A DNA stretch of 64,000 bases from Nonlabens ulvanivorans. Its GTDB lineage: Bacteria > Bacteroidota > Bacteroidia > Flavobacteriales > Flavobacteriaceae. The translations under genes and the position numbers were made by a program. Position 1 is the stretch's first letter. Each line of letters opens with the position of its first letter. The notes under the pieces are model-generated. The model saw nothing but the letters and a program-made list of their open reading frames with translations, ran no database searches and was not told the DNA's origin. The stretch is taken from the NCBI RefSeq assembly GCF_000755285.1, contig NZ_BBMK01000001.1, forward strand, positions 930,001 to 994,000, read 5' to 3'. Below are positions 4,473-62,089 of this stretch, piece by piece.

Positions 4473-5540
4473 ATGATAGAAACAGATATTCTTATAATAG
4501 GAGCAGGTCCTACAGGTCTTTTTACCGTTTTTGAAGCAGGTTTATTAAAGTTAAAATGCCATTTAATAGATGCACTACCGCAACCTGGTGGGCAGTGTAG
4601 TGAGTTATATCCTAAAAAACCTATATACGATATACCTGGTTTTCCAGAAGTTCTAGCCGGTGATTTAGTAGACAATCTTATGGAACAAATAAAGCCTTTT
4701 CAACCAGGATTTACTTTAGGCGAGCGAGCAGAAGATATTGAGAAATTAGAAGATGGTACTTTTATAGTGACTACTAATAAAGGAACTAAACATCATGCAA
4801 ATGCTGTAGCCATCGCTGGTGGATTAGGTTCTTTTGAACCACGTAAACCGCAGATTGAAGGAATAGAGAATTATGAAGATCACGGTGTGGCTTACATGAT
4901 TAAAGATCCAGAAACTTTCAGAGATAAAAAAGTTGTTATCGCTGGTGGTGGTGATAGTGCATTAGACTGGTCTATCTTTTTAGCAAATGTTGCTCAAGAA
5001 GTAACGCTTGTGCATAGAAGAGAAGAGTTCCGTGGAGCGTTAGATAGCGTTGAAAAAGTTCAAGAGTTAGTGACCCAGAATAAAATTAATCTTATAACGC
5101 CTGCAGAGGTGACAGATGTAAGAGGTAATGGTAAGGTAGAGTCTGTTACAATTACTATACACGATGAAGCAAAGCGTTTTCAGGAAATAGAATGTGATGC
5201 GTTTATACCATTGTTTGGCTTGTCTCCTAAGTTAGGACCTATTGCAAATTGGGGGGGACTTGAAATAGAGAAAAACGCTATTAAAGTAGATAATACCTTA
5301 GACTACCAAACTAACATTCCAGGGATTTATGCGATAGGAGATGTGAACACATATCCAGGAAAGTTAAAGTTAATTTTATGTGGATTTCACGAGGCAACTT
5401 TAATGTGTCAGAGTGTTTATCAACGCATGAATCCTAATAAAAAATATGTGCTTAAATATACAACCGTAGGTGGTATCGATGGTTTTGATGGTTCTCGCAA
5501 AGAGGCAGAAAAAGCCGTGATTAAAAAAATAGGTTCATAA
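4473..5540 (+). CDS. Ferredoxin/flavodoxin-NADP+ reductase, YumC type
   Basis: Thioredoxin-reductase-like FNR with FAD and NADPH domains, transferring electrons between NADPH and ferredoxin. The N-terminal FAD motif GAGPTG lies near residue 8, the NADP motif GGGDSALDW near 160, and a C-terminal AIGDVNTYPGKLKLI completes the FAD site. It has no CxxC redox pair, which separates it from thioredoxin reductase. The stop overlaps the ferredoxin start (TAATG), so enzyme and probable partner are co-translated. Oddity: a G7 run at 5251-5257 encodes NWGGLEIEKN where the family has NWGLEIEKN, one extra Gly. Confidence 0.9.
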   Translation: MIETDILIIGAGPTGLFTVFEAGLLKLKCHLIDALPQPGGQCSELYPKKPIYDIPGFPEVLAGDLVDNLMEQIKPFQPGFTLGERAEDIEKLEDGTFIVTTNKGTKHHANAVAIAGGLGSFEPRKPQIEGIENYEDHGVAYMIKDPETFRDKKVVIAGGGDSALDWSIFLANVAQEVTLVHRREEFRGALDSVEKVQELVTQNKINLITPAEVTDVRGNGKVESVTITIHDEAKRFQEIECDAFIPLFGLSPKLGPIANWGGLEIEKNAIKVDNTLDYQTNIPGIYAIGDVNTYPGKLKLILCGFHEATLMCQSVYQRMNPNKKYVLKYTTVGGIDGFDGSRKEAEKAVIKKIGS

Positions 5541-5863
5541 TGGATCCAGACGTAAATATTACTATTATAGATAGAGAAGGCGTAGAGCATATCGTTCAAG
5601 CACCTACAGACATGAATATGAATTTAATGGAAGTTTGTAAAGCTTATGAATTACCAGTAGAAGCAGTTTGTGGTGGAATGGCAATGTGTGCTACCTGTCA
5701 AGTATATGTAAAGAGCGATCACGATTTAGTAGAGCGCAATCCTGATGAAGAAGCCATGCTATGGGAAGCCTTACATGTGCAAGATAATAGTCGTCTAGGT
5801 TGTCAAATTCCGATTTCTACCGATTTAGAAGGCCTCGTTGTTCAATTAGCTCCAGAGCAGTAA
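5540..5863 (+). CDS. [2Fe-2S] ferredoxin, adrenodoxin type
   Basis: 107-residue electron carrier. Cysteines are arranged as AVCGGMAMCATC, then C in LGCQIP: C-x5-C-x2-C, then about 37 residues to the fourth, the vertebrate/ISC-type ferredoxin pattern. The fold is expected from IDREGVEHIVQAPTDMNLME-like N-terminal strands. It is coupled to the preceding reductase and is the obvious electron partner. Which final acceptor it serves (sulfite reductase, Fe-S assembly, desaturase or other) cannot be told from the window. Confidence 0.92.
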   Translation: MDPDVNITIIDREGVEHIVQAPTDMNMNLMEVCKAYELPVEAVCGGMAMCATCQVYVKSDHDLVERNPDEEAMLWEALHVQDNSRLGCQIPISTDLEGLVVQLAPEQ

Positions 5864-5884
5864 TCTATTTCATATTTTAGCACA

Positions 5885-6986
5885 ATGAATAATTGGATCA
5901 TTGTGCTTATTTTTTTGCTTTCGCGAAAGCGTTACCAGCACAAACTCATGAGCCAACTATTTCAAGCTCATTCTATATAGATGCTAGCTATTATTATGGC
6001 GCTATTCTACAACACAATCCAGACATTTCTCACTTAATCACGGGTCATCCAGAAGGTGTAATCTTACGCTATAATAAACGTACTTATGGTGAGAAGGAAT
6101 GGCAATCTTTGTATGGATTTCCAGATTTTGGGTTTACTTTTTCTTATCAAGATTTAAAGAATAAGTCGCTTGGTGAAGCTTTTGGAGCTTATGGCCACTA
6201 TAATTTTTATGCATTCCATAGGCAGTTGCAGTATAGTATTGGTACGGGAATAGCTTATATGACAAATCCTTATGACCCAGTAACTAACTTCAGGAATGTA
6301 CTACGGCACGCGCTTTACAAGTGCAACCTATCTGCAAGTAAACTACCGTAAAGAAAATCTAAATAGGTTCCATAGGTTTTCAAACAGGAATCACCTTAAT
6401 TCATTATTCAAACGGAAATATTAAGGAGCCTAATACTTCTACTAATTCGCTTCTTTTTAATGTAGGTCTCAATTGGTCTTTAGAGCCAGACAACCCAATT
6501 TATAAAAGATGGAGTATTGAAAAATATAAAGAACCTATTCATGTTAATGCTATTCTTAGATATGGATGGAATGAGAGCAACTTGCGTGGTAGTGGACAAT
6601 TCCCATTTTATACCTTCAGTTTTTACATAGATAAACGATTAAATAAAAAGAGTTCAATTCATGCCGGTACCGAGTTAATGCTCACCGATTTTTTAAAAGA
6701 GCATAGAGATTATCAGGCAAATAGTTTCCCTAATAGTGGTATTACAGGTAATGAGTCAACGGCTAGAATAGGGTTATTTGCAGGCCACGAACTACATATA
6801 GGAAAAACCAGTGTGCTTACCTATTTAGGTGTTTACGTGTATGATGAGATTAATTATGGATCAGCAATTTATAATAGAATAGGCTTGCAACGTAGGATTA
6901 ATAATCATTGGTTAACTAGCTTAACCCTTAAATCGCATGGCGCAAGTGCCGAGGCCTTAAGTTTAGGATTAGGGTATAGACTGTAA
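5885..6986 (+). pseudogene. PagL/acyloxyacyl-hydrolase-like protein, copy 1, frameshifted three times
   Basis: Tandem paralogue of the next gene. It begins MNNWIIV at 5885 but is readable only in pieces: a T-run at 5910-5916 is one base short, one extra base lies near 6297-6303 and another near 6368-6371. The length (1102 nt, remainder +1) agrees with -1, +1, +1. After repair it is a beta-barrel with signal peptide and the PagL motif HYSN (near 6400). PagL-type enzymes deacylate lipid A in the outer membrane. Three lesions suggest a real pseudogene, but many genes here carry similar small indels, so sequence error is also possible. The palindrome at 5917 lies within the signal peptide. Confidence 0.75.
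5917..5930. repeat. Palindromic repeat, copy 1 (coding, signal peptide)
   Basis: Perfect 14-nt core GCTTTCGCGAAAGC. In the repaired frame of the PagL-like gene it encodes AFAKA inside the signal peptide. Confidence 0.9.
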
Positions 6987-7051
6987 GAATAGTATAAGAA
7001 ACTTATTTTTGAAAGGATAACGGGCAGGATTCTATTTCATACTTTAGCGCA

Positions 7052-8160: not shown

Positions 8161-8162
8161 AA

Positions 8163-8924: not shown

Positions 8925-9530
8925 TTATTGTAGTACAATAGGCAATTCAGCTCTGTAAGTTCCCCCCCATCCTATCTTTAAATGTACTGTATTGTCATTC
9001 TTAGGCGAGTACAACGCAATACTTAATTGTTCTAAGCTCTTTGAATCTTTAGTTACAGGAATTGTTACTGTAACAAGATCAAGTTCTGGTTTATGGCTGT
9101 AGTTTCCCCCCCAACCATCATTTTCTGAGTTGATGTGAACGGTCCATTCATTCTCACTAGGAGTAATAACGATAGAGTAGCGACCAGCTTTAATTAATTT
9201 TCCACCTATCATGGCGTCTTTCAAAAGTAGTAATTCAGTACTCTCGTTTGCACCTACACGCCATGACTCGCCTAGTTTTGTGATTCCATCTTTACGATTA
9301 TCTGTTGTGCGAAAGATGCTGCGGCCATTTAATGAAGGTCTACTATATAAAACACGTATCTGTGGTTCAAGAGCCATTTTTTGCTCTTCAGTTTTTGCAA
9401 ATTGTCTTTTTGCAGCTTGAGAAGGGAAGAAAGCCGCATCCATTGGGCTTTTATCGGGATCTACAAAATCTTGCGCATAGAGATTACTGCTTATTAGGGC
9501 AATCGCTAGAAGTAAAAGTGTCTTTTTCAT
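8925..9530 (-). CDS. DUF2911 domain secreted protein
   Basis: 201 residues with signal peptide MKKTLLLLAIALISSNLYAQ. The body matches DUF2911: YSRPSLNGRSIF, LGESWRVGANESTEL, and a closing beta-sandwich. The function is unknown in the literature I know. Two G7 runs (complement of 8962-8968 and 9106-9112) give GWGGTYRAEL and DGWGGNYSHK, whereas the family usually has WG followed directly by the next residue (WGAY-like in the second case). One extra Gly at each of two sites in one small protein is unusual. Its start is 50 nt from the truA end. Confidence 0.82.
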   Translation of the reverse strand: MKKTLLLLAIALISSNLYAQDFVDPDKSPMDAAFFPSQAAKRQFAKTEEQKMALEPQIRVLYSRPSLNGRSIFRTTDNRKDGITKLGESWRVGANESTELLLLKDAMIGGKLIKAGRYSIVITPSENEWTVHINSENDGWGGNYSHKPELDLVTVTIPVTKDSKSLEQLSIALYSPKNDNTVHLKIGWGGTYRAELPIVLQ

Positions 9531-9578
9531 AGTATTTATTTTATGAGATAAAGATAAATGTAAACCTTCACTAAAATA

Positions 9579-12799: not shown

Positions 12800-13807
12800 A
12801 TGCAAGGAACCGTCTATAGATCAACAGGAAGCTGGTATGAAGTTAAAGGTGTCGATGGTGCGATGTATTCATGTCGTATTAAAGGTAAATTTAGACTTCA
12901 AGGAATTAAGAGCACTAATCCTGTAGCCGTCGGTGATCGTGTAGAATTTGAAATTGAGAAAAAAGGAGATGAAGAAATAGGTATTATTAATGAGATTGAG
13001 GAGCGTGATAATTACATCGTGCGTAAATCTGTAAACCTTTCTAAGCAAACTCATATTATTGCTGCAAATGTCGATCAGGTTTTCTTAATTGTCACTTTAA
13101 ATAATCCTCCAACATTTACCTCATTCATAGATCGTTTTTTAGTAAGTGCAGCAGCATATCAAATTCCAGTAATCTTACTTTTTAATAAAGTAGATACCTA
13201 TAACGATGATCAAGATGAAGTAGTAGTAAATCCAGAAACTGGTGAAGAAATGCTTGCGATGACAGAGCTTGATCAAGTGCGCATTTTAATGCAACTATAT
13301 AAATCAATAAATTATGATTGCATTGCTATAAGTGCAGCAACTGGTAAAAACATTGAATTAGTAAAAGAGAAGATGCTGGGTAAAACCAGCATGTTTGCTG
13401 GTCATAGTGGTGCTGGTAAAAGTACTACCGCAAACGCTATTCAACCTGGACTGGAGTTAAAGACCAAGGCTATAAGTTTGCAGCATAAACAAGGGCAACA
13501 TACGACTACGTTTGCAGAGATGTTTGATTTAGAATTTGATGCTCGTATTATCGATACACCAGGTATTAAAGGTTTTGGTGTTGTAGATTTAGAGAAAGAA
13601 GAAATAGGTGGTTATTTCCCAGAGATTTTTGAACGTAAACAGGACTGTAAATTCCATAATTGTTTACACCTTGAAGAGCCTAAATGTGCCGTTAAAGATG
13701 CCGTTGAATCTGGAGAAATCCACTTAAGTCGTTATGAAAGCTATGTGCAAATTGTAAATGGAGATGAGGATAACTATCGTGCAGATAAATATACCACCCC
13801 CCCTTGA
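12800..13807 (+). CDS. rsgA: Ribosome small subunit GTPase RsgA
   Basis: 335-residue circularly permuted GTPase that assists late 30S assembly. Order: N-terminal OB domain, NKVD (G4), then P-loop GHSGAGKST, then DTPGIKGFG (G3), and a C-terminal zinc finger with CKFHNCLH and a later Cys in PKC. This G4-G1-G3 order is diagnostic. The last codons run through a C7 tract (13797-13803) that encodes TPP before the TGA; the stop overlaps the dtd start by 3 nt. Confidence 0.95.
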   Translation: MQGTVYRSTGSWYEVKGVDGAMYSCRIKGKFRLQGIKSTNPVAVGDRVEFEIEKKGDEEIGIINEIEERDNYIVRKSVNLSKQTHIIAANVDQVFLIVTLNNPPTFTSFIDRFLVSAAAYQIPVILLFNKVDTYNDDQDEVVVNPETGEEMLAMTELDQVRILMQLYKSINYDCIAISAATGKNIELVKEKMLGKTSMFAGHSGAGKSTTANAIQPGLELKTKAISLQHKQGQHTTTFAEMFDLEFDARIIDTPGIKGFGVVDLEKEEIGGYFPEIFERKQDCKFHNCLHLEEPKCAVKDAVESGEIHLSRYESYVQIVNGDEDNYRADKYTTPP

Positions 13808-14337: not shown

Positions 14338-16249
14338 ATGAAAAATAAGTTACTATTAATTAGTTTGTTTCTTGTTGTTGGATGGGCTAGTTGTTATGCC
14401 CAGCAAGAACTTGATTTTGATAGTCATACTATATCAGATAATCTTAAAGTAAATGCAAACGCCGTTGTAAGGCAAAATAATATTGTAATTACTATTAAAG
14501 AATATGATGAGGTAGAGGTGATGACAGATCGATTAGTAACTGTTTTTAATAAAGACGGTGAAAATGATATTAATGCCGTTGAATCCTATAATAGCAGCAC
14601 CAAGATTAAAAAATGGAAGCTACCATTTACGACGCTGATGGGATTAAAGTGACTAGATTTAAAAATAGTGACTTTAAAGATGTTAGTTCTGTAGGTAGTG
14701 GAACCTTATATAGTGATAATAGAGTAAAATATCTAGAATACACACCACGTGATTATCCTTATACAGTTCATTTTGAATCTACTGTTTTACTGAAATCTAC
14801 AGCGTTTCTACCATCATGGTTGCCGCTAGAATATTATCATACAAGCACAGAGCATTCTTCCTTTAAAGTCATCAATGAATCTGATGTCGAAATTAAATTT
14901 AAAGAGTCTCATTTAGAAGACTACCAAATTTCTAAAAATGGCTTATTAGATTATACGGCTACTAATTTACCTGCTGTTGACTATCAGTCTTATAGTCCTG
15001 ATTTTACGACCTATGGACCTTTAGTTAAAATCGCACTTAAGAAATTTAAAATGCAAGGAGTAGACGGTATTAATAATGAATGGTTAGGTTTTGGTAAATG
15101 GATGAATGATCAGCTATTGTCAGATGTAGGTGTGCTACCTGAAGAGGTTAAAAAAGAAATTAAAGAGCTCACTAAAAATGTGAAAACGGACAAAGAAAAG
15201 GCCAAAATAGTTTATGAGTTCATGCAAGATCGGTCTCGTTATATAAGTGTTCAAGTTGGTATAGGTGGATGGAAACCTATTGATGCAACCGAGGTGCATA
15301 ACATGGCTTATGGAGATTGTAAAGGATTGTCCAATTATACAAAAGCTCTTCTCAATGAGGTAGGTATACCATCTTATCACGCAGTCATTTATGGTGGTAA
15401 TAATATACGTAGTATAGACAGCGAGTTTTCTTCAACACAAGGAAATCATATGATTCTATATATTCCACAACTTGATGATGAGAAGAATATTTGGTTAGAA
15501 TGCACTAGTAAAATAAGTCCTTTTGGTTATATAGCTGGTTTTACAGATGATAGAGATGCACTAGTCGTTACTGAAAAAGGTGGGGGGAAATTTTACATAC
15601 TACCGTTTATAAAACAGAAGACAATACACAAGAATCTAAAGCTGTAATCCAAGTGTTAAAAGACGGTAGTGCGTCTGCTGATATAGAAATGGTGACCAAA
15701 GGTTATCAATACTCTTTTAGAGACCGTCTAGAAAAATATTCTAAAAGGGATCTGATTAAAAAGTATAAAAGTTATTGGAGTCATTTAAATGGTTTATCAA
15801 TAATAAGTGCAAGCGCATTGAGCGATAAAGATCAGATTCAAGTAATTGAGAAAGCTAGTGTGGTAGTGAGTAGATATGGGTCTAAAACAGGAAATTTATT
15901 ACTTATACAGCCTGTATTTTTTAATCGTAATGAAAATGAACCAACTAGATATAAGAATAGAAAAAACGATTTTGAAATAGATCGTGGTTATATTGACATC
16001 GATGAATATGAAATTGATCTTGAGGAAGGATTAACTATCGATGCTCTTCCAAAGCCTGTTGAGATCAATTCTAAATTTGGCACTTATAAGTTAAGCATTA
16101 TTGATGCTGGTAACGGAAAACTAAAAGTAAATCGATACTTAAGAATTAATAAAGGTTATTTTGATAAGGAGGATTATAACGCCTATCGAGAATTCAGAGC
16201 AACCCTAGTGAAGCATGATAAATCTAAAGCAGTTTTAAAATTAGACTAA
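14338..16249 (+). CDS. DUF3857 / transglutaminase-like secreted protein 1 (two frameshifts)
   Basis: Signal peptide (MKNKLLLISLFLVVGWASCYAQ), a DUF3857 beta domain (EYTPRDYPYTVHFES), then a transglutaminase-like core with YGDCKGLSNY (Cys), ISVQVGIGGWKP and GNHMILYIP (His). The frame breaks at the A-run 14608-14613 (one A short) and at the G-run 15582-15587, which has 6 G where 4 or 7 would keep frame. Repaired text continues ...KGGE-ILHTTVYKTEDNTQ... into the 15653 frame. The 1912-nt length (remainder +1) fits -1 and +2. It overlaps the next paralogue by 1 nt. DUF3857 proteins are periplasmic or surface proteins of unknown role. Confidence 0.82.
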
Positions 16250-18323: not shown

Positions 18324-18654
18324 ATGAGCCTTAAACAATCGCAAGAACAAGTAGACCAGTGGATTAAAAACCATGGCGTGCGTTATTTTAATGAATTGAC
18401 TAATATGGCTCAGCTTACAGAAGAAGTAGGTGAGGTAGCTCGTATTATAGCACGACGCTATGGGGGAACAAAGTGAAAAAGAAAGTGATAAAAATAAAGA
18501 TTTAGGAGAGGAACTGGCAGACGTTATGTTTGTAGTATTATGTCTTGCAAATCAAACAGGAACTGATCTAGAGAAAGCATTTGCAAAAAAACTGCAAATT
18601 AAGACAGAACGTGATCATGATAGACATCATAATAATGATAAGCTTAAAGGCTAG
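18324..18654 (+). CDS. MazG-like nucleotide pyrophosphohydrolase (one frameshift)
   Basis: About 109 residues after repair. All-alpha NTP pyrophosphohydrolase signature: LTEEVGEVARIIARRYGEQ, then LGEELADVMFVVLCLAN (EExxE ... ExxD metal ligands). It probably removes non-canonical NTPs. A run of 5 G at 18463-18467 interrupts the frame; GGGG restores YGEQSEKESDKNKDLGEEL, and the 331-nt length (remainder +1) agrees with one extra base. A MazG gene between dtd and aroA is usual in flavobacteria. aroA starts 2 nt after the stop. Confidence 0.85.
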
Positions 18655-20001: not shown

Positions 20002-21057
20002 ATGAAGCTATCTCAATTCGGTTACAAACTACCAGAAAATTTGATTGCGCAACATCCTGCAGAAAATAGAGATGAGTCGCGACTTATGGTACTCCATAAA
20101 AAAACGGGTGAAATTGAACACAAAATGTTCAAAGATGTACTCGATTATTTTGAAGAAGACGATGTTTTTGTAACTAATAATACACGTGTGTTTCCTGCCA
20201 GACTTTATGGTAATAAAGAAAAAACAGGCGCACGTATCGAGGTTTTTCTTTTAAGAGAATTAAACCCTACTACAAAACTGTGGGACGTTCTAGTTGATCC
20301 AGCGAGAAAAATAAGAATAGGAAATAAGCTTTACTTTGGTGAAGATGAAAGTCTAGTAGCTGAGGTGATTGATAACACCACTTCTAGAGGAAGAACTTTA
20401 AGATTTTTATTTGATGGTAGCTATGAAGAGTTCCGTCAGAAATTGAAAGACTTAGGGGGGGAAACTCCACTTCCTAGAGAGTTAGGTCGCGAGGTTGAAG
20501 AAGAAGATGAAGAGCGTTACCAGACTATATATGCTACTAATGAAGGTGCTGTTGCTGCGCCTGTAGCAGGTTTACACTTTTCAAAACATTTATTAAAGCG
20601 CTTAGAAATTAAAGGTATTCATAGAACTGCGGTAACTATGCACATAGGTCTTGGAACTTTTGCTCCTGTTGAGGTTGAAGATTTATCTAAACATAAAATG
20701 GATAGCGAGCAGGCAGAGATTACTGAAGAAACACGTGCTATTGTAAATAAAGCTATTGACAATAGAAAGAATGTTTGTGCGGTGGGAACAACGACTATGC
20801 GTACTTTAGAAAGTGCAGTGAGTAGTGATGGGCATCTTAATACATTTGAAGGTTGGACTAATAAATTTATTTTCCCACCTTACGATTTTAGTATAGCAAA
20901 TGCTATGATTACAAACTTTCATCACCCTAAGTCAACTTTGATGATGCAAGCAGCAGCTTTTGCAGGTTATGATTTATTGAAAAAAGCTTACGACGTAGCA
21001 ATTAAAGAAGAGTATAAATTCTCTACTTATGGAGATGCAATGTTGATAGTTGACTAA
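20002..21057 (+). CDS. queA: S-adenosylmethionine:tRNA ribosyltransferase-isomerase
   Basis: 351 residues; adds the ribosyl part of SAM to 7-aminomethyl-7-deazaguanine tRNA on the way to queuosine. N-terminal [49 protein letters not shown] and [11 protein letters not shown] are canonical. A G7 run at 20455-20461 yields [11 protein letters not shown], while the family motif is (L/I)GETPLP; again one surplus Gly beside a conserved active-site loop. It has its own promoter and a strong terminator downstream. Confidence 0.94.
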
Positions 21058-22899: not shown

Positions 22900-23940
22900 T
22901 TGAAAGAAACTAAGAAAGATATTAGATCATATACTCAAGATGAATTGAGAGATTATTTTGTAGATCAAGGTCAACAGGCTTTTAGAGGTAATCAGGTGTA
23001 TGAATGGTTATGGAAAAAAGGAGCGCATCACTTCGAGGATATGACTAATCTTTCAAAAGAATCAAGAGCATTTCTTCAAGAGCATTTTGTGATCAATCAC
23101 ATAAGAGTAGATCACATGCAGCGCAGTAAGGATGGTACTATAAAGAATGCTGTTAAATTACACGATGGTCTTACAGTAGAATCTGTAATGATACCTACAC
23201 CTACCAGAACAACAGCTTGTGTTTCTTCTCAAGTAGGATGTAGTTTGAATTGTGAATTTTGTGCTACGGCGCGTTTAAAACGCATGCGTAATCTGAATCC
23301 TGATGAGATATATGATCAAGTCGTTGCCATAGATCAACAAAGTAGAAGTTATCATAACAGACCACTTTCAAACATCGTCTTTATGGGAATGGGTGAGCCG
23401 TTAATGAATTATAATAATGTCATTAAGTCTATCGATAAAATAACAGGTGATGATGGTCTAGGGATGTCTCCTAAACGCATCACTTTATCCACTAGTGGTG
23501 TGCCTAAAATGATGAAAAAGTTGGCAGACGATAGGCCTAGGTTTAATCTAGCACTTTCATTGCATAGCGCGATAGATGAAAAGCGTGTTAAAATCATGCC
23601 TTTTAATGAGCAATTTCCCCTTGAGGATATTAAAGATGCTCTACGTTACTGGTATGATAAAACAGGAACTCGTGTAACCTATGAATATGTAGTGTGGAAA
23701 GGGATCAATGACACTAAAGAAGACATTGATGCGTTGATCGAGTTTTGTAAAGTAATACCTTGTAAGGTTAACATCATAGAATATAACTCCATAGATGACG
23801 CCCGTTTTGAACAAGCGTCAAAACAAGCAGTAGATGCTTATGAGCGAGAACTCAATCGTTATGGTTTTACTGTAAATGTAAGGCGCAGTAGAGGAAAGGA
23901 TATTGATGCAGCTTGTGGACAACTGGCAAACAAAGAATAA
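22900..23940 (+). CDS. rlmN: 23S rRNA (adenine2503-C2)-methyltransferase
   Basis: 346-residue radical-SAM methyltransferase acting on A2503 of 23S rRNA and on some tRNAs. The Cx3Cx2C cluster motif lies in GCSLNCEFCATA, FMGMGEPLMNYNNV follows, and the two mechanistic Cys residues appear as VSSQVGC and as the C-terminal AACGQL. The start is TTG at 22900 (no ATG in frame nearby; the first residues KETKKDIRSYT fit the family). It is followed by a symmetric terminator shared with the convergent secreted-protein gene. Confidence 0.93.
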   Translation: MKETKKDIRSYTQDELRDYFVDQGQQAFRGNQVYEWLWKKGAHHFEDMTNLSKESRAFLQEHFVINHIRVDHMQRSKDGTIKNAVKLHDGLTVESVMIPTPTRTTACVSSQVGCSLNCEFCATARLKRMRNLNPDEIYDQVVAIDQQSRSYHNRPLSNIVFMGMGEPLMNYNNVIKSIDKITGDDGLGMSPKRITLSTSGVPKMMKKLADDRPRFNLALSLHSAIDEKRVKIMPFNEQFPLEDIKDALRYWYDKTGTRVTYEYVVWKGINDTKEDIDALIEFCKVIPCKVNIIEYNSIDDARFEQASKQAVDAYERELNRYGFTVNVRRSRGKDIDAACGQLANKE

Positions 23941-25709: not shown

Positions 25710-26690
25710 ATGAAAATAGTTGAGCAAATAAAAGCACCTGTTGCACACGAGATGGAACTCTTTGAGAAAAAGTTCCAGTTAGCTATGGCATCTCGCATCG
25801 CCTTGCTCAATAGAATCACTCATTTTATAGTGAATCGCAAAGGGAAACAAATGCGACCAATGTTTGTTTTTCTAGTTGCTAAAATGATAGGAGATGGACA
25901 GGTTAATGATCGTACCTACAGAGGTGCATCCGTCATTGAGTTAATTCATACCGCGACATTAGTACATGATGATGTTGTAGATGATAGTCTCAAAAGACGT
26001 GGATTCTTTTCAGTTAACGCACTATGGAAAAATAAAATAGCAGTCCTAGTAGGTGATTATTTATTATCTAAAGGTTTGTTGTTAAGTATCGATAATGGAG
26101 ACTTTGACTTGCTACAGATTATTAGTGTTGCTGTACGAGAGATGAGTGAAGGTGAATTACTTCAAATAGAAAAAGCTCGTAGATTAGATATCACTGAAGA
26201 TGTATACTATGACATTATACGCAAAAAAACCGCGACACTTATTGCAGCTTGTTGTAGTCTAGGAGCATGTGCCGTTTCCCCCCCAGGATCTCCTGATGTT
26301 GAAAAGATGAGAGAATTTGGTGAGATGATAGGAATCGCTTTTCAAATTAAAGATGATCTTTTTGATTACGGTAATGAACGCATCGGTAAGCCTACGGGAA
26401 TTGATATCAAAGAACAAAAAATGACATTACCGCTTATCCATACCTTGCAAGTGGCAAGTAAAAAAGATCGCAAGTGGTTGATCAATTCTGTAAAAAAGCA
26501 TAATAGAGATAAAAAGCGCGTTAAAGAAGTTATTGATTTTGTTAAGGACAATGGCGGTTTGGAATATGCAGTAAAAGCCATGTATGACTACCGTGATAAG
26601 GCAATGGTTATTTTAAATACCTATCCTGATTCTGAGTATAAACAATCCTTAGAGCTTATGGTAGAGTACGTTATCGACCGTAAAAAATAA
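25710..26690 (+). CDS. Polyprenyl diphosphate synthase
   Basis: 326-residue trans-isoprenyl diphosphate synthase, probably providing the menaquinone side chain. First Asp-rich motif HDDVVDDS, second DDLFDY, and GKQMRP in the N-terminal part. A C7/G7 run at 26278-26284 encodes SPPGSPDVEKM; one Pro fewer (four C) would be a more usual spacing before the DVEKM helix. It is followed by a palindromic repeat and der. Confidence 0.9.
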   Translation: MKIVEQIKAPVAHEMELFEKKFQLAMASRIALLNRITHFIVNRKGKQMRPMFVFLVAKMIGDGQVNDRTYRGASVIELIHTATLVHDDVVDDSLKRRGFFSVNALWKNKIAVLVGDYLLSKGLLLSIDNGDFDLLQIISVAVREMSEGELLQIEKARRLDITEDVYYDIIRKKTATLIAACCSLGACAVSPPGSPDVEKMREFGEMIGIAFQIKDDLFDYGNERIGKPTGIDIKEQKMTLPLIHTLQVASKKDRKWLINSVKKHNRDKKRVKEVIDFVKDNGGLEYAVKAMYDYRDKAMVILNTYPDSEYKQSLELMVEYVIDRKK

Positions 26691-32448: not shown

Positions 32449-33936
32449 TATTAGAATGGATTTGCATCATAATTTACTCAACATCACTTGTGATGATTTT
32501 GTTCTATGCATTTGCTCAACTCAATTTACTATTTAACTACCTAGCGGCGCGCAAAAACACGGTTACTGGACCTACTTTTGATCTAGATAACCCAGCGAGG
32601 TACCTTATGTTACTATACAATTGCCTGTTTTTAACGAGGCTTATGTAATGGAACGACTTTTAGATAACATCGTGTTACTGGATTATCCGCATGACAAGTT
32701 GGAAATACAGGTGTTAGACGATTCTACCGATGAAACCGTTGCGACTACTAAAGCTCATGTAGAAAAACTAGCTGCTACAGGAATTGATATCGTACACATC
32801 ACAAGAAAAAATAGAGTAGGTTATAAAGCCGGTGCACTTAAAGAAGGTTTAATAGACGCTAAAGGTGAATTTATCGCCATTTTTGATGCAGATTTTTTAC
32901 CGCAAACAGACTGGTTGAAGAAAACAGTTATTCATTTTAAAGATCCGCAGATAGGTGTAGTGCAAACCGTTGGGGGGGACATTTAAATAGAGATTATTCT
33001 ATTCTTACACAGATACAAGCCTTTGCACTGGATGCTCACTTTACATTAGAACAAGTTGGACGCAATTCAAAAGGACATTTTATTAACTTTAATGGAACTG
33101 CCGGTATATGGCGCAAAGAAACTATCATTGATGCAGGTAATTGGGAAGGAGATACACTTACAGAAGATCTAGATTTGAGCTATAGAGCGCAGCTCAAAAA
33201 TTGGAAGTTTAAATATCTAGAAGACGTTACCACACCTGCAGAATTACCTATTATAATTAGCGCAGCGCGTTCACAACAGTTCAGATGGAATAAAGGTGGA
33301 GCAGAAAACTTTAGAAAAATGTTCAAACGCGTGGTAAGCAGTTCAAACATTGATTTTAAAACAAAACTGCATGGTGTATTACATTTATTAAACAGTACTA
33401 TGTTTCTAAATGTATTGATAGTTGGATTACTTAGTATACCGATGCTTTATATCAAGAATGAATATGCTCACCTAAGAGTTTACTTTATTGTGATGAGCTT
33501 TTTTGTGATTAGTACCATTATATTTTTTATTTGCTATTGGTATATGTATAAGAATACTTACGGTGGTGGTTTTAAAAACTTCATTAGTTACATAGGGATG
33601 TTTTTCACCTTTTTCTCAATTGCAATGGGTTTTTCACTACACAATTCAATAGCTGTGATAGAAGGTCACTTAGGGAAACGCAGCGAGTTTGTGCGCACAC
33701 CTAAGTTTAATCTTGCAGCGGTAGGAGGCAATTGGAAAACAAATAAATACCTCAAGAAAAAAATAAGTCGCAACGTGATATTAGAAGGTATCCTTATGCT
33801 CTACTTTGGATTTGGAATGTACTCTGCATTTATAGTTGGAGATCAAGGTGGTGATTTTGGACTCTTTCCTTTTCACTTAATGCTGTTTATAGGATTTGGT
33901 TTTGTGTTTTTCCGTAGTATCACAGATAAGCAATAA
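32445..33936 (+). CDS. Membrane glycosyltransferase family 2, cellulose-synthase-like (two frameshifts)
   Basis: About 497 residues after repair: an N-terminal membrane helix, GT-A core with QLPVFNEAYV, LDDSTDET, FDADF, TEDLDLSYR and the QQFRW (QxxRW) motif, then four or five C-terminal membrane helices. Breaks: GG at 32599-32600 should be GGG to read ARVPYVTIQLPVFNE, and one base is missing just before the G7 run (32975-32981) so that QT(R)WGGHLNRDYS can be read; the family motif is QTRWGHLN. The 1492-nt length (remainder 1) fits two lost bases. Shares 1 nt with the following GT-C gene. Confidence 0.85.
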
Positions 33937-36752: not shown

Positions 36753-38291
36753 CTATTTCTTGCTTACCTCATACAAATCGGTCCTGCGATCTTTTAAGTT
36801 TTTAACCGCTCCGTAATTGTGGAGTTCTTTTAATAAATCGAGATCCACATCAGCAACCAGAATCATTTCTGTGTTTGCTGTTGCTTCTGCTTTTACACCA
36901 TTAGAAGGGAAAGCGAAATCACATGGTGTGAATACTGCGCTTTGTGCATAAGAAATATCCATATTTTCTACTGCAGGTAAATTCCCCACGCTACCAGCGA
37001 TAGCTACATAACATTCATTCTCTACCGCTCGAGCTTGTGAGCACAAACGTACTCTTGCATAAGCATTTTGAGTATCAGTTAAGAATGGGACAAAAAGAAT
37101 TTGCATACCTTCTTGTGCCATAATGCGACTTAATTCTGGGAACTCACTGTCGTAGCAAATCAAGATTCCTATTTTACCACAATCGGTGTCAAAAGTCTGG
37201 ATCTTGCTTCCACCTTGTAATCCCCCCCAAACTTTTTGCTCGTCTGGTGTTACATGTATTTTTTCATATCGTTCTATTGTACCATCACGACGGCACAAAT
37301 TCCCTACGTTGTATAATTGCCCATCAATGATTTCAGGCATAGAACCTGTAATAATATTGATGTTATACTTAATGGATAATTCAGAAAACTTATTTCTTAT
37401 CATCTCCGTATATTTTGCTAGTTCTCTAATAGAGTCACTAACACTTAACTTATTGTAAGCAGCCATTAAAGGCGCGTTAAAATACTCTGGGAATAAAGCA
37501 AAATCAGATCTATAAGCTGCAACTGCATCTACAAAGTATTCTACCTGTTGCATCAATTCGTCAAAACCAGAGTAAGGACGCATTTGCCATTGAATAAGAC
37601 CTAGACGCACCGTGCTTTTCAATGCGCTCGTCTCTGTGATAGGTTTTGTATAATAAATATTATCCCATTCTAGTAATACAGCAAATTCCATAGAGGCAGC
37701 ATCGCCGTCTAGATAGTTTTTAAGTACTCTAGAAACATGGAAGTCATTAGAAAGCTGAAAGTTCAACACAGAGTCTGTAATCTCTTTATTACGCACCTTT
37801 TCTATGTATTCCTTAGGACTCATGTCACTTGCGTGATTATGATAGTTAGGAATACGACCACCGAAGGCTATTCCTCTTAAATTTAAATTCTCACAAAGCT
37901 CTTTACGGTAATCATATAAACGACGACCTAATCGCATACCACGATATTGTGGCTTTATAAATACTTCTATTCCATATAGTACATCACCGTCATTATCATG
38001 AGTAGTGAATTTATAGTTACCAGTTACTTGCTCATAAGTGTACTGACCGCTGAAATCTTCATACTTTACAACTATAGAAAGCGCACAGGCTACTATCTCT
38101 TCATTCACTTTAAGAACAACTTGACCTTCAGGAAACTTTTCAACTAGCGTTTTAATTTGTTCTTCTTTCCAATAAGAATCTGGTAGATTGCTATAAGAAT
38201 CTATCATTGCATGTTTCAACTCTTCATAATCTTTAAGCTGTAAAAACTCAAGATTTAAGTTGTCTATTTTACTCATATTAATATCACTCAT
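36753..38291 (-). CDS. GNAT acetyltransferase-carbon-nitrogen hydrolase fusion
   Basis: 512 residues. The N-terminal half (about 10-215) is a GNAT domain with the acetyl-CoA loop QYRGMRLGRRLYDYR. The C-terminal half (about 228-510) is a nitrilase-superfamily amidase with Glu in LFPEYFN, Lys in YEKIHVTPDE and Cys in LICYDSEFPE. This two-domain protein is widespread, but its substrate is unknown to me. A C7 run (37222-37228) makes KVWGGLQGG where related amidases have WGLxGG. Its position beside a polyamine cluster makes an N-acetylated amine or amide substrate conceivable (inference). Confidence 0.88.
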   Translation of the reverse strand: MSDINMSKIDNLNLEFLQLKDYEELKHAMIDSYSNLPDSYWKEEQIKTLVEKFPEGQVVLKVNEEIVACALSIVVKYEDFSGQYTYEQVTGNYKFTTHDNDGDVLYGIEVFIKPQYRGMRLGRRLYDYRKELCENLNLRGIAFGGRIPNYHNHASDMSPKEYIEKVRNKEITDSVLNFQLSNDFHVSRVLKNYLDGDAASMEFAVLLEWDNIYYTKPITETSALKSTVRLGLIQWQMRPYSGFDELMQQVEYFVDAVAAYRSDFALFPEYFNAPLMAAYNKLSVSDSIRELAKYTEMIRNKFSELSIKYNINIITGSMPEIIDGQLYNVGNLCRRDGTIERYEKIHVTPDEQKVWGGLQGGSKIQTFDTDCGKIGILICYDSEFPELSRIMAQEGMQILFVPFLTDTQNAYARVRLCSQARAVENECYVAIAGSVGNLPAVENMDISYAQSAVFTPCDFAFPSNGVKAEATANTEMILVADVDLDLLKELHNYGAVKNLKDRRTDLYEVSKK

Positions 38292-38445: not shown

Positions 38446-39417
38446 TTACATCTCTAATAAATAAGCAAAAATGAGCGGCGCCACGATAGTCGCATCACTT
38501 TCTACTATAAATTTAGGGGTGTCTTGATCTAGTTTTCCCCCCCAGGTGATTTTTTCATTAGGAACTGCTCCAGAGTAGCTACCATAACTGGTCGTTGAAT
38601 CAGATATCTGACAGAAATAACTCCAGAATGGTGTGTCTGTACGTTCCATATCTTGATACAACATAGGCACTACACAAATAGGGAAATCTCCTGCAATTCC
38701 ACCACCTATCTGAAAGAAACCGATTCCTTTTTGTGAATTATCAGTGTACCAATCTGCAAGGAAAGTCATGTACTCGATACCGCTTTTTACAGTGCTCGCT
38801 TTTAACTCACCTTTTAATACATAACTAGCAAAAATATTACCCATTGTACTATCTTCCCATCCAGGAACGACGATTGGTAAATTAGCTTTGGCAGCTGCGT
38901 ACATCCATGAATTCTCAATAGGAATCTCATAATACTGTTCTAGCACACCACTTAAAAGTAGTTTGTACATGTATTCATGAGGGAAATAACGCTCGCCTTT
39001 TGCCTCTGCATCTTTCCATATTTTCACGATGTGTTCTTGTAGTCTTCTAAAAGCTTCTTCTTCTGGAATACAAGTGTCTGTAACTCTATTTAGTCCTTTT
39101 TCTAATAAATCCCACTCGTCCTGCGGTGTTAAATCGCGATAGTTAGGGACTCTTTTATAGTGACTGTGCGCAACTAGATTCATCAAATCTTCTTCTAGGT
39201 TTGCACCTGTACAAGAAATGATGTGTACTTTATCCTGACGTATCATCTCGCCAAATATCTTGCCAATCTCTGCAGTACTCATTGCTCCAGCTAGAGAAAC
39301 AAGCATTTTAGAACCTTGGTTTAATTGAGCTTCATAACCTTTTGCAGCGTCTACAAGTGCAGCACTGTTAAAGTGTAAGAAGTAGTTTTCTATGAAATCT
39401 GTAATTGGTTTTCCCAT
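38446..39417 (-). CDS. Deoxyhypusine-synthase-like (homospermidine synthase type) enzyme
   Basis: 323 residues of the deoxyhypusine synthase family: SLAGAMSTAEIG, SCTGANLEEDL, VPGWEDSTMGN, QIGGGIAGDFPICVVP and VESDATIVAPLIFAYLLE. Bacteria lack eIF5A; bacterial members (some called SpeY) make homospermidine or related polyamines. Its location after speA and speB supports a polyamine role. The catalytic Lys of the family lies in WGK; here a C7 run (38537-38543) gives TWGGKLDQDTPKF, placing an extra Gly immediately before that Lys. If real, it should affect activity. Confidence 0.85.
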   Translation of the reverse strand: MGKPITDFIENYFLHFNSAALVDAAKGYEAQLNQGSKMLVSLAGAMSTAEIGKIFGEMIRQDKVHIISCTGANLEEDLMNLVAHSHYKRVPNYRDLTPQDEWDLLEKGLNRVTDTCIPEEEAFRRLQEHIVKIWKDAEAKGERYFPHEYMYKLLLSGVLEQYYEIPIENSWMYAAAKANLPIVVPGWEDSTMGNIFASYVLKGELKASTVKSGIEYMTFLADWYTDNSQKGIGFFQIGGGIAGDFPICVVPMLYQDMERTDTPFWSYFCQISDSTTSYGSYSGAVPNEKITWGGKLDQDTPKFIVESDATIVAPLIFAYLLEM

Positions 39418-45280: not shown

Positions 45281-46200
45281 TACAAGAAATTTTGAAGTCG
45301 TTCGATGATGGCAGGCAAATCAATTAATAATATAGAAAGCACGCCACCTACAATGACTATTTTAAGTATAAAATGTATTAACAGATATTCTCTTTTACGT
45401 CGCGAGCTCCATAATAACGGTAAGCATACTAGTAAGGCACCGCCTATTAAGGCAAAGTAATAACGCATATATCCTATATTAAAATAGAGTATCAATGCTG
45501 TAATAGGTATAATAGTAAGTAATGTTAGTAAGGTGTAAAAACGCTTGCTTGCTTTTTCTCCTAGTACTACTGGTATGGTATGGTAATTTTGAGCGAGATC
45601 ACCTCTTAAGTTTTCGAGATCTTTAATGAGCTCGCGCATCGCAAGTATGAGAAATAAGAAACTACCATGTACAAATACAACTAGATATAAATTACGGTAA
45701 TACATGAATAGCACAAAAAATGGAGTAATAGCCAGTAGGGCTGCAGTAAGATTACCAACAAAAAGGACTCTTTTTAATTTATGCGAGTAGAACCACATGG
45801 CAAAAATATAAGCCGCAAAAAACAATCCAGCACGCCACGAAACTATCAATCCAAGTATAAAAGCAATCGCGTTAACTGTAAAATAAACCGTCCATAAGGT
45901 AGAGCGACTTACTTGATTTTCTAGCATGGTTTTTTGCGGTCTATTAATAAGGTCTTTTTCACGGTCGTAAAAATTATTAATGATGTAACCACCTGCTATA
46001 GCTGCGGCACTAGCCAGAATAATCAACCACAACTTATAATCCAGCACAATCTCCTTAACAGATAATTCTGGGGGGGCGATAATAAAAACAGCCGCTAGTA
46101 ATTGCGCTATCGCTATTATAGAGATATTATAAAGTCTTACTGTTGAAAAAAGACTCAACGCTTTAATGACTAGCATTTTTATACTAGCCTTTGTGCTCAT
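45280..46200 (-). CDS. UbiA-family prenyltransferase (geranylgeranylglycerol-phosphate synthase-like)
   Basis: About 306 residues from ATG 46200 (the frame is open to 46224, giving an alternative start) with about eight membrane helices. The first Asp-rich motif is NNFYDREKDLINRP; the second is LIKDLENLRGD. UbiA enzymes attach prenyl chains to aromatic or polar acceptors; placement next to mevalonate genes suggests a lipid or quinone prenylation step. A G7 run (46070-46076) gives IIAPPELS, one Pro more than four bases would. It is separated from mevalonate kinase by a terminator. Confidence 0.83.
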   Translation of the reverse strand: MSTKASIKMLVIKALSLFSTVRLYNISIIAIAQLLAAVFIIAPPELSVKEIVLDYKLWLIILASAAAIAGGYIINNFYDREKDLINRPQKTMLENQVSRSTLWTVYFTVNAIAFILGLIVSWRAGLFFAAYIFAMWFYSHKLKRVLFVGNLTAALLAITPFFVLFMYYRNLYLVVFVHGSFLFLILAMRELIKDLENLRGDLAQNYHTIPVVLGEKASKRFYTLLTLLTIIPITALILYFNIGYMRYYFALIGGALLVCLPLLWSSRRKREYLLIHFILKIVIVGGVLSILLIDLPAIIERLQNFL

Positions 46201-57800: not shown

Positions 57801-58742
57801 TAGCCAGCTCTATCCTAGAAGGTTTAAAACAAACTGCCGTTAAAAGCGATGAAAATGGCATGTACTGGAAAGAAAATAAAAATAGCTGGTACTGGTACAG
57901 TAGCGATATCGAGACGCAAGCACTTGCCATAGAAGCATTTCAAGAAGTTACTGCCGATTTAAATAGTGTCGAAGAACTCAAAATATGGTTGCTTAAAAAC
58001 AAAAGAACAAACCAGTGGAAATCCACAAAAGCAACTGCCGATGCGACTTATGCATTATTGTTACAAGGCGGCAAATGGCTGGACGTTCAAGAAAATAATA
58101 AAATCACATGGGGGAAATAAACCGTTACCGGTGGAAAAAATGAAAGCGGTAGAAAAAGAAGCTGGAACTGGTTACTTTAAAATCACTATGAATGCGCCTG
58201 AGGTTTATAAGGAACTGGCAACGGTAACGGTAAAAAACAAGAGTGATGTAACAGGTTATGGTGCGCTGTACTGGCAGTATTTTGAAGATCTAGATAAGAT
58301 TAAAGTAGATGATGATTTGCCTTTATCTGTAAAGAAAAAACTCTTCAAAAAAGTAATGACCGATAGTGGAGAGAAGCTAGATGAAATCACCGCACAGGAT
58401 CCTTTAAAAATAGGAGATTTAATAACAGTCAGACTCATCATAAAAACAAATGCTGATATGGATTTTGTCCATTTAAAAGATATGCGTGCGAGTGGTTTTG
58501 AGCCAGTAGATGTGATTTCAAAATATAAATGGCAAGATGGATTAGGCTATTATCAAAGCACTAAAGATATAGCAACGCATTTCTTTTTTGATCAGATGAA
58601 TAAAGGAACTTATGTTTTTGAATACGACGTGCGAGCAAACAACGCAGGACATTTCTCTAATGGAATTACACAAATAGAATGTATGTATGCTCCAGAATTC
58701 TCTAGTCATAGTGAAGGAATGAGAGTGAAAATTGAGAAATAA
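51885..58742 (+). CDS. Giant alpha-2-macroglobulin-family protein with internal TonB plug domain (two frameshifts)
   Basis: About 2285 residues. Signal peptide; N-terminal helical region; MG2-type domains (RAIYRPGQKVYFKAILLKK, 53640 on). Inserted after them are a carboxypeptidase-like repeat (GKITDINGNPLYGTLVVVKG, about 55480-55690) and a TonB-receptor plug (TLQGQVPGLEV ... PLIIVDGVP ... AAASSIYGNRGANGVIII, about 56050-56345), with no beta-barrel. The A2M core follows (TAFFLPELRTDQDG), with a thioester-type CAEQ at 57098-57109 and MG10. The frame breaks at AA 54709-54710 (one A short) and at GGGGG 58110-58114 (one G extra); together they cancel in length. Expected at the envelope, possibly as a protease trap. 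Confidence 0.85.
57706..57720. repeat. Palindromic repeat, copy 12 (inside the A2M gene)
   Basis: CGCTTTCGCGAAAGC, perfect 14-nt core, coding Y-A-F-A-K-A-E in the C-terminal helical domain. Confidence 0.93.
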
Positions 58743-58769
58743 TTTTAAAACATCTAAAAAATAAAAGTA

Positions 58770-58860
58770 ACATGAACTTCGACGTCACATTTCGAGTGCC
58801 TTAATGCTCACTTAATTGAACTTAAAGTGTCACGCTGAGTAAGTGGAAGAGCAGTTTGAA
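58770..58860. repeat. Possible degenerate intergenic repeat
   Basis: ACTTCGACGTCACATT on the left and GTGTCACGCTGAG on the right resemble halves of the TTCGAC/GTCACGCTGAG type intergenic repeats seen in many flavobacterial genomes. Only one decayed copy is here, so the call rests on memory of the motif. Confidence 0.3.
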
Positions 58861-58913
58861 AAATAATTTTTAGATTGACTAACGGTGCTTTTAAAATTAT
58901 AAAATGAATTTTT

Positions 58914-58945
58914 CACCTAATCACCTAATCACCTAATCACCTAAT
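58914..58945. repeat. 8-bp tandem repeat (CACCTAAT)x4
   Basis: Four exact copies of CACCTAAT directly abutting the stop codon of the minus-strand gene at 58946. A short array that could vary in copy number. Confidence 0.9.
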
Positions 58946-59593: not shown

Positions 59594-59605
59594 AAATAGT
59601 TTGTA

Positions 59606-60373: not shown

Positions 60374-60427
60374 GATGGTTAGTTTTATAATATGCCTAAA
60401 TTAGAAAAAAAATATGGAATGATTTTT

Positions 60428-61114
60428 TTATTGTAGAGATGGATTGACTCCATTAATGTGTTCGTTATAATACCTTAATAAACGTTCATCGCTTATTTTT
60501 TCCATGCCTAAAACTTCCTGACTTCTTAAAAAAGTCAAGAAGTTCGTTTCTGAAAGGTATTCTTGAAGCAACTTACGTGAAAGCGGTGCATAGCTGTAAT
60601 GCCATGGCTCGTATTTAAATCCTGTACGATTTTTATTAAGAGTGTAGACCAATTCAAAACCGTAAGTGGCTGCATTTTCTTCCATCCAGTCTTTCATTTT
60701 GCAGAAAGGACCGTTGCCATGAAACTTATCTGGAACCAGTACATCACCGCTGTATGAAGCGCCTTGGTCTATGATATCCATGTCTGTTCCCCAGTGATGT
60801 CTACTCGTTCCTGGAACGGTTGAATACTCTACGATTTTATCAAATATAGCATCTGGAGCAAGGCCTTGAGCGGCATATTTTTTATATTTCCTGTTCCAGA
60901 TCTGGCGCTGTCTATTAAAACTGCGATAGCCAGAAACAATTTTTAAATCGATACCATCTTTAAGGGCAGCGGCTCGCATTTTATTGAACGCGCTTTGTGC
61001 ATCTGATTCTAGTGAATTATTACTATTAGTAGTTTGTCCGGTAAGTTGTTGAGTGCTTATTTGGGCATTGGTGCTTGCAAATAGCAATAAAAGGAGTATG
61101 GTGGTGATTTTCAT
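60428..61114 (-). CDS. M15-family D-alanyl-D-alanine carboxypeptidase (VanY-like)
   Basis: 228 residues: signal peptide (MKITTILLLLLFASTNA), then GYRSFNRQRQIWNRKY, zinc ligands in SRHHWGTDMDI (His and Asp) and in EPWHYSY (His). Trims D-Ala from peptidoglycan stem peptides. The HHWGTD motif is coded with an unexpanded four-G run (60789-60792). It overlaps the upstream acetyltransferase gene by 4 nt (ATGA). Confidence 0.9.
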   Translation of the reverse strand: MKITTILLLLLFASTNAQISTQQLTGQTTNSNNSLESDAQSAFNKMRAAALKDGIDLKIVSGYRSFNRQRQIWNRKYKKYAAQGLAPDAIFDKIVEYSTVPGTSRHHWGTDMDIIDQGASYSGDVLVPDKFHGNGPFCKMKDWMEENAATYGFELVYTLNKNRTGFKYEPWHYSYAPLSRKLLQEYLSETNFLTFLRSQEVLGMEKISDERLLRYYNEHINGVNPSLQ

Positions 61115-61569
61115 AACGCTTTATACATTTTATAATGAGTGCCTACTATGTTGATTTCAAATGGTTTGCTTACTATTTGATAGCCCATTTTCTCATAAAA
61201 AGATACGGCACTTTCTCGAGCGTTGAACCATAAGGCCAACACATTTTTATTTTTCAGCGTCTCTTCGGCATGGTTAATTAGTTTTTTACCTAATTGTTGA
61301 CCTTGCATCTCATGAAGTACAGCCATACCTCTTAATTGATAGCATTGTTTAAAATTATAAGTCTTTAATTCTTCAATACTATCATCTTGATACATTAAAA
61401 ATGTAGCAACTCCTTTCAGTTGTTGGTCAACATAAGCACCTAGATGGAAAGTGGTCGTTAAATCATCGCCTTCAAAATAACAATCAGTTATAGGTCTACC
61501 AGCTCTTAATACGGGATGACGTACTGGATAAGTTTCAATGGCTGATATATTACGAATTATTAAAGTCAT
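61111..61569 (-). CDS. GNAT-family N-acetyltransferase
   Basis: 152 residues; acetyl-CoA loop in QLRGMAVLHEMQGQQLGKKLINHAE (split here) and C-terminal NVLALWFNARESAVSFYEKMGYQIV. Substrate unknown. It shares 20 nt with the preceding GNAT gene and 4 nt with the VanY-like gene, so the three are translationally coupled. Confidence 0.85.
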   Translation of the reverse strand: MTLIIRNISAIETYPVRHPVLRAGRPITDCYFEGDDLTTTFHLGAYVDQQLKGVATFLMYQDDSIEELKTYNFKQCYQLRGMAVLHEMQGQQLGKKLINHAEETLKNKNVLALWFNARESAVSFYEKMGYQIVSKPFEINIVGTHYKMYKAL

Positions 61570-62089
61570 CTTTTGTGATTTTATAGCATCGTGCCGGTTT
61601 TGTTCCAGACCATAAAAAGCGATGGTCCAATCTCATGCGAAGTCTTTGAGCTACTCGTTGCGATCCGTAATTATGTTCATGTACATGTGCTTCAACAACC
61701 TCTAATTTATGATCTTCAAAAGCATGCTGTAATACACGTCTAGTAGATTCTGTTGCATATCCTTTTCCCCCCCAAAACCTTTTTATAAAACGATAGCCAG
61801 TATCGACAAAGTCTCCTTCTTGATGATATTTGAGTCCAGTCCAGCCTATAAATGCATCATCTTCCTTACGTATCACAGCTAGCCTTCCCATACTGTATTT
61901 TTTAATCTGACCTTGAGGATTATTAATATAATCTAGAACAAATTTGCGTGCGTCTTCTATATTCTTAAAAGGTATATCGCCTGTGTAACGCATGACTTCT
62001 TCATCATCATTAAGTTCAAATAAAAATGGTGCGTCAGACTCTTCAAATGGTCTTAAAATTAATCGATCTGTCTCAAATCTTAGTATCAT
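61550..62089 (-). CDS. GNAT-family N-acetyltransferase (RimJ-like)
   Basis: 179 residues of the RimJ/RimL type: ETDRLILRPFEESDAPFLFEL, then the CoA loop RFIKRFWGGKGYATESTRRVLQHAF (split). Usual family sequence is WGKGYATE; the G7 run (complement of 61767-61773) adds a Gly inside the pyrophosphate-binding loop, a place where insertions are rarely tolerated. Possible substrates are protein N-termini or antibiotics. Overlaps its neighbours on both sides. Confidence 0.87.
   Translation of the reverse strand: MILRFETDRLILRPFEESDAPFLFELNDDEEVMRYTGDIPFKNIEDARKFVLDYINNPQGQIKKYSMGRLAVIRKEDDAFIGWTGLKYHQEGDFVDTGYRFIKRFWGGKGYATESTRRVLQHAFEDHKLEVVEAHVHEHNYGSQRVAQRLRMRLDHRFLWSGTKPARCYKITKDDFNNS

What the first reader, a model, noticed from the sequence alone, without database searches (positions are those of the whole stretch)
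5251..61773. G/C runs have a mode of exactly seven, and most add a surplus residue at conserved WG or GE/P motifs
Direct count of G or C runs of four or more on either strand: four at 23617, 35325, 36526, 36984, 38516, 47864, 48275, 60789; five at 18463, 58110; six at 15582; exactly seven at 5251, 8962, 9106, 13797, 20455, 26278, 32975, 37222, 38537, 46070, 61767; none longer. In AT-rich DNA this bimodal pattern is unexpected. Known family motifs predict GGGG at most seven-sites: WGLEIEK (ferredoxin reductase), WGK with the catalytic Lys (deoxyhypusine synthase), WGKGYATE (GNAT CoA loop), WGLxGG (amidase), LGETPLP (QueA), RWGHLN (GT2), WGxY (DUF2911). Here each has one extra Gly, i.e. +3 G. 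At three other sites +1 or +2 breaks the frame (MazG, DUF3857, A2M). Either a motif-specific consensus artefact or a real tract-expansion process.
Basis: partly seen in the sequence, partly recalled or inferred. Interest (0 to 1): 0.72.

Follow-up and report, generated by a model that had tools for sequence, protein, structure and literature searches.

The report
Assembly error lengthens G runs

Summary
The pattern is really in the file: exact G/C runs in the window are 4:9, 5:2, 6:1, 7:11; the genome has 565 exact sevens and 52 exact sixes. It is almost certainly not in the organism, a Nonlabens-like flavobacterium. Its 22 congeners have 0-7 exact sevens each. At unmutated aligned sites, own sevens are four in a close sister in 39 of 40. 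With strict flanks, sister fours are written here 4:25, 5:12, 6:2, 7:22 of 61, while threes agree in 667 of 675. rRNA is hit too: fives become eights or sixes, so the rule is 'plus three or plus one', not 'to seven'. Flanking sequence does not predict lengthening (AUC 0.48 and 0.51), nor does reading frame matter: 35 of 98 coding and 6 of 14 non-coding insertions are not multiples of three. Trp-Gly is simply where GGGG occurs in AT-rich genes: 29 of 42 unlengthened, 26 of 39 lengthened runs. One-base deletions are also common. Verdict: consensus artefact, probably of an unpolished long-read assembly.

The parts
5251..5257 (+). G7 in a Pyr_redox_2 protein (WGLEI); sister four
8962..8968 (-). 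G7 (C7 on +) in a DUF2911 protein (WGTY); sister four
9106..9112 (-). G7 (C7 on +) in the same DUF2911 protein (WGNY); sister four
13797..13803 (+). C7 at the 3' end of the RsgA GTPase gene; sister CACCA, net +3
15582..15587 (+).
18462..18466 (+).
20455..20461 (+). G7 in QueA (LGGETPLP here, single Gly in relatives); sister GGAG, net +3
26278..26284 (+). C7 in a polyprenyl synthetase; sister CGCC, net +3
32972..32978 (+). G7 in a family-2 glycosyltransferase (RWGHLN); sister four; a one-base deletion just upstream also breaks the frame
37222..37228 (-). G7 (C7 on +) in a CN_hydrolase protein (VWGLQG); sister four
38537..38543 (-). G7 (C7 on +) in a deoxyhypusine synthase family protein (TWGK); sister four
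46070..46076 (-). C7 on the coding strand (G7 on +) in a UbiA prenyltransferase; sister four
58110..58114 (+).
61767..61773 (-). G7 (C7 on +) in a GNAT acetyltransferase (YWGKGY); sister ACCCC, net +3

Best explanation
The sevens are a consensus-sequence artefact of this one assembly. Where the true genome has four consecutive G or C, the assembly writes the true length in about 41% of cases, +3 in about 36%, +1 in about 20% and +2 rarely (strict sites), at random with respect to the surrounding sequence; fives in the rRNA region gain +3 or +1. Seven is the mode because nearly all true long G/C runs in the sister are exactly four. Shown here: the sister reads four; the insertions are additive; no effect of local context, motif, position along the contig or reading frame was found; many other single-base deletions exist. 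Inferred: the source is a long-read assembly without short-read polishing, and the +3 arises in a step that estimates homopolymer length (base-caller or, slightly more likely, consensus/polishing model), which flips between two length states once a G/C run reaches four.
For: Genome-wide 565 exact sevens and 52 exact sixes here against 0-7 sevens in each of 22 congeners. Sister G011: at unmutated sites own 7 is 4 in 39 of 40, own 5 is 4 in 15 of 16, own 6 is 4 in 4 of 4. Strict-flank matrix: sister 4 -> own 4:25, 5:12, 6:2, 7:22 (n=61); sister 3 -> 3 in 667 of 675; control G002 against G011: 4 -> 4 in 10 of 10. rRNA contig: of 28 sister four-runs 11 read seven, 3 six, 5 five, 8 four and 1 is shortened; of 8 sister five-runs 4 read eight and 4 read six (tallied by me from the listing). 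The Rfam SSU model shows surplus letters as insertions against the bacterial consensus (first half of the alignment seen). Context of 12 bases each side (AUC 0.482 and 0.505, n=414) and neighbouring sites (170 of 339 same class, shuffle mean 175) do not predict 7 versus 4. Coding +1:+2:+3 = 30:5:63 (one larger left out), non-coding 5:1:8, Fisher P = 0.77. 122 of 318 sister ORFs have a frame break here; on the window 15 of 46, against 1 of 51 in the control genome. Completeness 86.94% against 93-100% in 20 of 22 congeners. A nanopore error study reports that lengths are mainly slightly under-estimated but sometimes largely over-estimated, with G and C worse than A and T (PMC8486125, passages).
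Against: No reads or assembly record were available, so the technology is inferred. The papers I saw describe nanopore homopolymer errors mainly as shortening; a context-free +3 appears in none of the passages seen, and one benchmark has R10.4 consensus correct for the vast majority of homopolymers below 11 bases (PMC9262707, passages). In the looser count 20 sites read three here and four in the sister, one own seven stands against a sister six, two own fours against a sister three and one own five against a sister two; the strict count has no 4-to-3 among 61. Against G002 in the window only 3 four-runs passed strict flanks and all 3 read four here, although the looser match gives six own sevens on G002 fours. 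In the rRNA listing one sister seven reads six and one sister three reads seven, so +3/+1 is not the only change.
Confidence: 0.97

Rival explanations
1. A real, lineage-specific tract expansion: a slippage-prone polymerase or repair defect lengthened GGGG to GGGGGGG across the genome.
For: Insertions beyond one base are concentrated at G/C runs of four or more, and +3 keeps the frame in 63 of 98 coding insertions there.
Against: Frame-breaking insertions are as common in coding as in non-coding DNA; 16S and 23S genes carry the same insertions; A/T runs up to six are almost unchanged; five and seven are common but six is rare (80, 26 and 225 runs of five, six and seven in 1.18 Mb), which stepwise slippage would not give; 122 of 318 compared sister ORFs are frame-broken.
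Confidence: 0.01
2. The artefact is triggered by the organism's own DNA: a modification in or near G runs alters the sequencing signal so that runs are over-called.
For: Of the 39 genomes searched (this one and 38 relatives) only this one shows a large excess of sevens over sixes. Modified bases are a known source of nanopore error (recalled; PMC12506013 names methylation-related errors in its title, search listing only).
Against: Most modification systems act on sequence motifs (recalled), and flanking sequence has no predictive value here (AUC about 0.5); sevens are equally G and C on the + strand (106 and 107; fours are 116 G and 85 C).
Confidence: 0.04
3. The first reader's motif-specific consensus artefact (for instance a frame-aware or protein-guided polisher that adds a Gly codon at WG or GE).
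For: 8 of the 11 window sevens lie at WG or GE and are +3.
Against: The WG share is alike for unlengthened (29 of 42), +1 (11 of 15), +2 (3 of 4) and +3 (26 of 39) runs; non-coding DNA and rRNA are lengthened too; +1 and +2 insertions break frames.
Confidence: 0.01

Closest known systems
Homopolymer-length consensus errors of unpolished long-read (nanopore-type) bacterial assemblies
   Same: Indels in homopolymers, many single-base coding deletions, broken genes, depressed completeness; G and C homopolymers read worse than A and T in PMC8486125 (passages); homopolymer indels dominate nanopore-only assembly errors in PMC11232133 (passages).
   Different: Those errors are described mainly as shortening; here true fours and fives mostly gain exactly +3 or +1, independent of local context, while A/T runs up to six are almost always right.
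Phase-variable homopolymer tracts (contingency loci)
   Same: Long poly-G or poly-C tracts inside or near genes (recalled).
   Different: Those are a limited set of loci, often surface or regulatory genes, with graded lengths (recalled); here GGGG in general is affected, housekeeping and rRNA genes included, with few runs of six.

Membership tests
Long-read homopolymer consensus error | Run lengths differ from close relatives at homologous sites while flanks agree | tested here: met
   Sister 4 -> own 4:25, 5:12, 6:2, 7:22 of 61 with six identical bases on each side
Long-read homopolymer consensus error | Ignores reading frame and functional constraint | tested here: met
   Coding 35 of 98 frame-breaking, non-coding 6 of 14; 16S/23S insertions
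Long-read homopolymer consensus error | Accompanied by other small indels that fragment genes | tested here: met
   44 of 50 strict coding deletions are of one base; 122 of 318 sister ORFs frame-broken; 15 of 46 in the window against 1 of 51 in the control
Long-read homopolymer consensus error | Raw reads or an independent technology give the true length | not testable with these tools
   No reads available
Long-read homopolymer consensus error | Dominant direction is shortening of runs (usual, not strictly defining) | tested here: not met
   G/C runs of four and five are lengthened; losses are seen in G/C runs of one to three, in A/T runs and at one seven
Phase-variable contingency tract | Restricted to particular loci or gene classes | tested here: not met
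   Spread over the protein-coding contigs sampled, varied housekeeping genes and rRNA
Real slippage expansion | Stepwise distribution of lengths, and depletion of frame-breaking lengths in genes | tested here: not met
   Few sixes between fives and sevens; no depletion

The most novel reading that the evidence does not exclude
The over-calling is triggered by an unusual property of this strain's DNA in G runs (such as a partial base or backbone modification) that makes the sequencer or its model read GGGG as GGGGGGG, so the assembly error would be an indirect sign of a real, unrecognised DNA modification.
Probability: 0.04. Interest if true: 0.5.

Novelty: not a real feature. Interest (0 to 1): 0.12.

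Why it matters
Biologically it is an artefact. Practically it matters because this genome is held as one species' genome in a reference collection, while its proteins carry false extra residues at conserved Trp-Gly sites, many of its genes are frame-broken (122 of 318 sister ORFs compared, alignment noise not excluded) and its 16S sequence carries insertions. An excess of exact sevens over exact sixes (565 to 52) looks like a cheap, reference-free quality flag: of the other genomes for which I counted both, sevens exceed sixes in 1 of 38 relatives (G017, 5 against 2) and in 0 of 19 genomes of the phylum sample.

Tried and rejected
Real tract expansion: rejected on rRNA, frame neutrality and the scarcity of sixes. 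Motif-specific lengthening: rejected by equal WG shares. 'All runs are set to seven': rejected because true fives become eight or six in the rRNA region. Local-context rule: logistic and random-forest models on 12 bases each side gave AUC 0.482 and 0.505 (fours and sevens only, the rRNA contig C9 left out). Regional effect along the contig: adjacent-class agreement 170 of 339 against a shuffle mean of 175. Signature shared by other genomes: for 19 genomes of the 296-genome phylum sample, picked by eye (18 with 135 or more exact sevens, not strictly the top ones, and one same-family genome with 64), sixes outnumber sevens in all 19; the other genomes of the sample were not counted for sixes. 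Literature: six paper searches (listings seen) and passages of three papers showed no description of a 4-to-7 G/C artefact; this does not prove that none is in print. The producing technology could not be identified; CycloneSEQ was looked for in one search (listing only) and nothing followed from it. The tRNA scan added nothing decisive. The species could not be named: the one genome-contig scan gave relatives only.

Full report
Setting. The window is G000:C25:930001-994000 of a 3.09-Mb, 25-contig genome. The best QueA matches in the named genome collection are Nonlabens (87% a Nonlabens MAG, 88% N. dokdonensis; records of this genome itself may be left out there), so the organism is a Nonlabens-like flavobacterium; its species was not determined. 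The nearest relative found is G011 (95% identity over one 6-kb query; about 89% over the window and 90% over a 400-kb stretch).

Observation. Exact G/C runs of four or more in the window number 4:9, 5:2, 6:1, 7:11. Over 1.18 Mb of the same genome they number 4:210, 5:80, 6:26, 7:225, 8:5, with broadly similar ratios on the protein-coding contigs sampled; 4 of the 5 eights are on the rRNA contig. Whole-genome counts are 565 exact sevens and 52 exact sixes. The 22 congeners have 0-7 exact sevens. The pattern is real in the file and genome-wide.

What the runs should be. At aligned, unmutated sites the sister G011 has four where this genome has seven in 39 of 40, five in 15 of 16, six in 4 of 4 and four in 42 of 44; 91 further own runs of four or more had substitutions in the sister and were not scored; 20 own runs of three stood against a sister four in this looser count. 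Requiring six identical bases on both sides, sister fours are written here as 4:25, 5:12, 6:2, 7:22 (n=61), while threes are right in 667 of 675, twos in 7,782 of 7,796, A/T sixes in 259 of 262 and A/T sevens in 55 of 63. The control pair G002 and G011 agrees at 10 of 10 fours; with G002 as the yardstick only 3 window fours passed the strict flanks, all four here. The total density of runs of four or more is about the same in both genomes (44.8 per 100 kb here in the 400-kb stretch, 41.0 in the 540-kb G011 stretch; summed): fours have been converted rather than new runs added.

Most telling site: rRNA. The one rRNA contig found (C9; one SSU and one LSU match) aligns to the G011 operon over 5.6 kb. 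Of 28 sister four-runs, 11 read seven, 3 six, 5 five, 8 four and one is shortened; of 8 sister five-runs, 4 read eight and 4 read six (tallied by me from the listing). One sister seven reads six here, and one sister three reads seven. The Rfam bacterial SSU model shows surplus letters as insertions (first half of the alignment seen). That such stretches are too conserved to tolerate these insertions is established knowledge, not a test made here. The behaviour of the fives shows that the rule is +3 or +1, not a target of seven.

No signature of selection or of motif. Insertions at own G/C runs in sister coding DNA are +1:30, +2:5, +3:63 and one larger; non-coding +1:5, +2:1, +3:8; Fisher P = 0.77 for the frame-breaking share, the one larger left out. 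Among sister fours, Trp-Gly accounts for 29 of 42 that stayed four, 11 of 15 that became five, 3 of 4 six and 26 of 39 seven. Flanking sequence (12 bases each side) predicts seven versus four with AUC 0.482 and 0.505 in two models (n=414, rRNA contig left out); of 27 groups of sites with the same four flanking bases on each side, 22 have discordant lengths. Neighbouring sites are not correlated.

General assembly quality. Strict deletions in coding DNA are of one base in 44 of 50 cases. Of 318 sister ORFs of at least 150 aa wholly inside one alignment block, 122 have a frame break here: 18 only by insertions at G/C runs, 89 only by other indels, 15 by both (alignment noise not excluded). On the window a similar test gives 15 of 46 here and 1 of 51 for the control genome G002. 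Completeness is 86.94% against 93-100% in 20 of 22 congeners. So G/C runs are only part of this assembly's indel load.

Uniqueness. In a 296-genome phylum sample some genomes have more sevens (up to 693), but the 19 genomes I checked all have more sixes than sevens (for example 2,777 against 693), the normal decline; this genome has a ratio of about 11 the other way.

Mechanism. That these are assembly artefacts is as well supported as sequence comparison allows. The most likely source is a homopolymer-length step in a long-read pipeline that flips between the true length and +3 at G/C runs of four or more; randomness with respect to context suggests a low-coverage consensus over a bimodal per-read length rather than a deterministic base-caller rule. 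This last part is inference. In the literature seen, nanopore homopolymer lengths are mainly under-estimated but include large over-estimates, and G and C are worse (PMC8486125, passages); homopolymer indels in consensus sequences that break genes are common (PMC11232133 and PMC9262707, passages).

Verdict. A real pattern in the file, not a feature of the organism. The most novel reading left open is that an unusual property of this strain's DNA provokes the over-calling.

Noticed in passing
G011 stretches L041-L076; G003 L212-L216; G001 L217-L221; G002 L077-L080: Several Nonlabens congeners nearly lack G/C runs of five or more: 2 five-runs against 152 expected by a first-order Markov model in 720 kb of G011 (fours 284 against 887), while A/T runs of four to seven are above expectation there (eights 74 against 108); G003, G001 and G002 look alike, G004 less so (13 fives against 35).
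   Followed up: partly
whole genomes G001-G022: Within the genus, exact-six G/C runs split into two classes: 0-5 per genome in 15 of 22 and 18-86 in the other 7.
   Followed up: no
window 7950, 27813, 48695, 54725 and elsewhere: Many one-base deletions in coding DNA outside long G/C runs; a few share contexts such as GATAGGAC or TATAG, possibly modification-linked sequencing errors.
   Followed up: partly
L195 (G000:C9) 4905: The sister has a run of seven G in 23S rRNA where this assembly has six, so one long run is shortened, not lengthened.
   Followed up: no
window 36756-38291: One protein matches both a GNAT acetyltransferase and a carbon-nitrogen hydrolase family, an apparent two-domain protein.
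   Followed up: no
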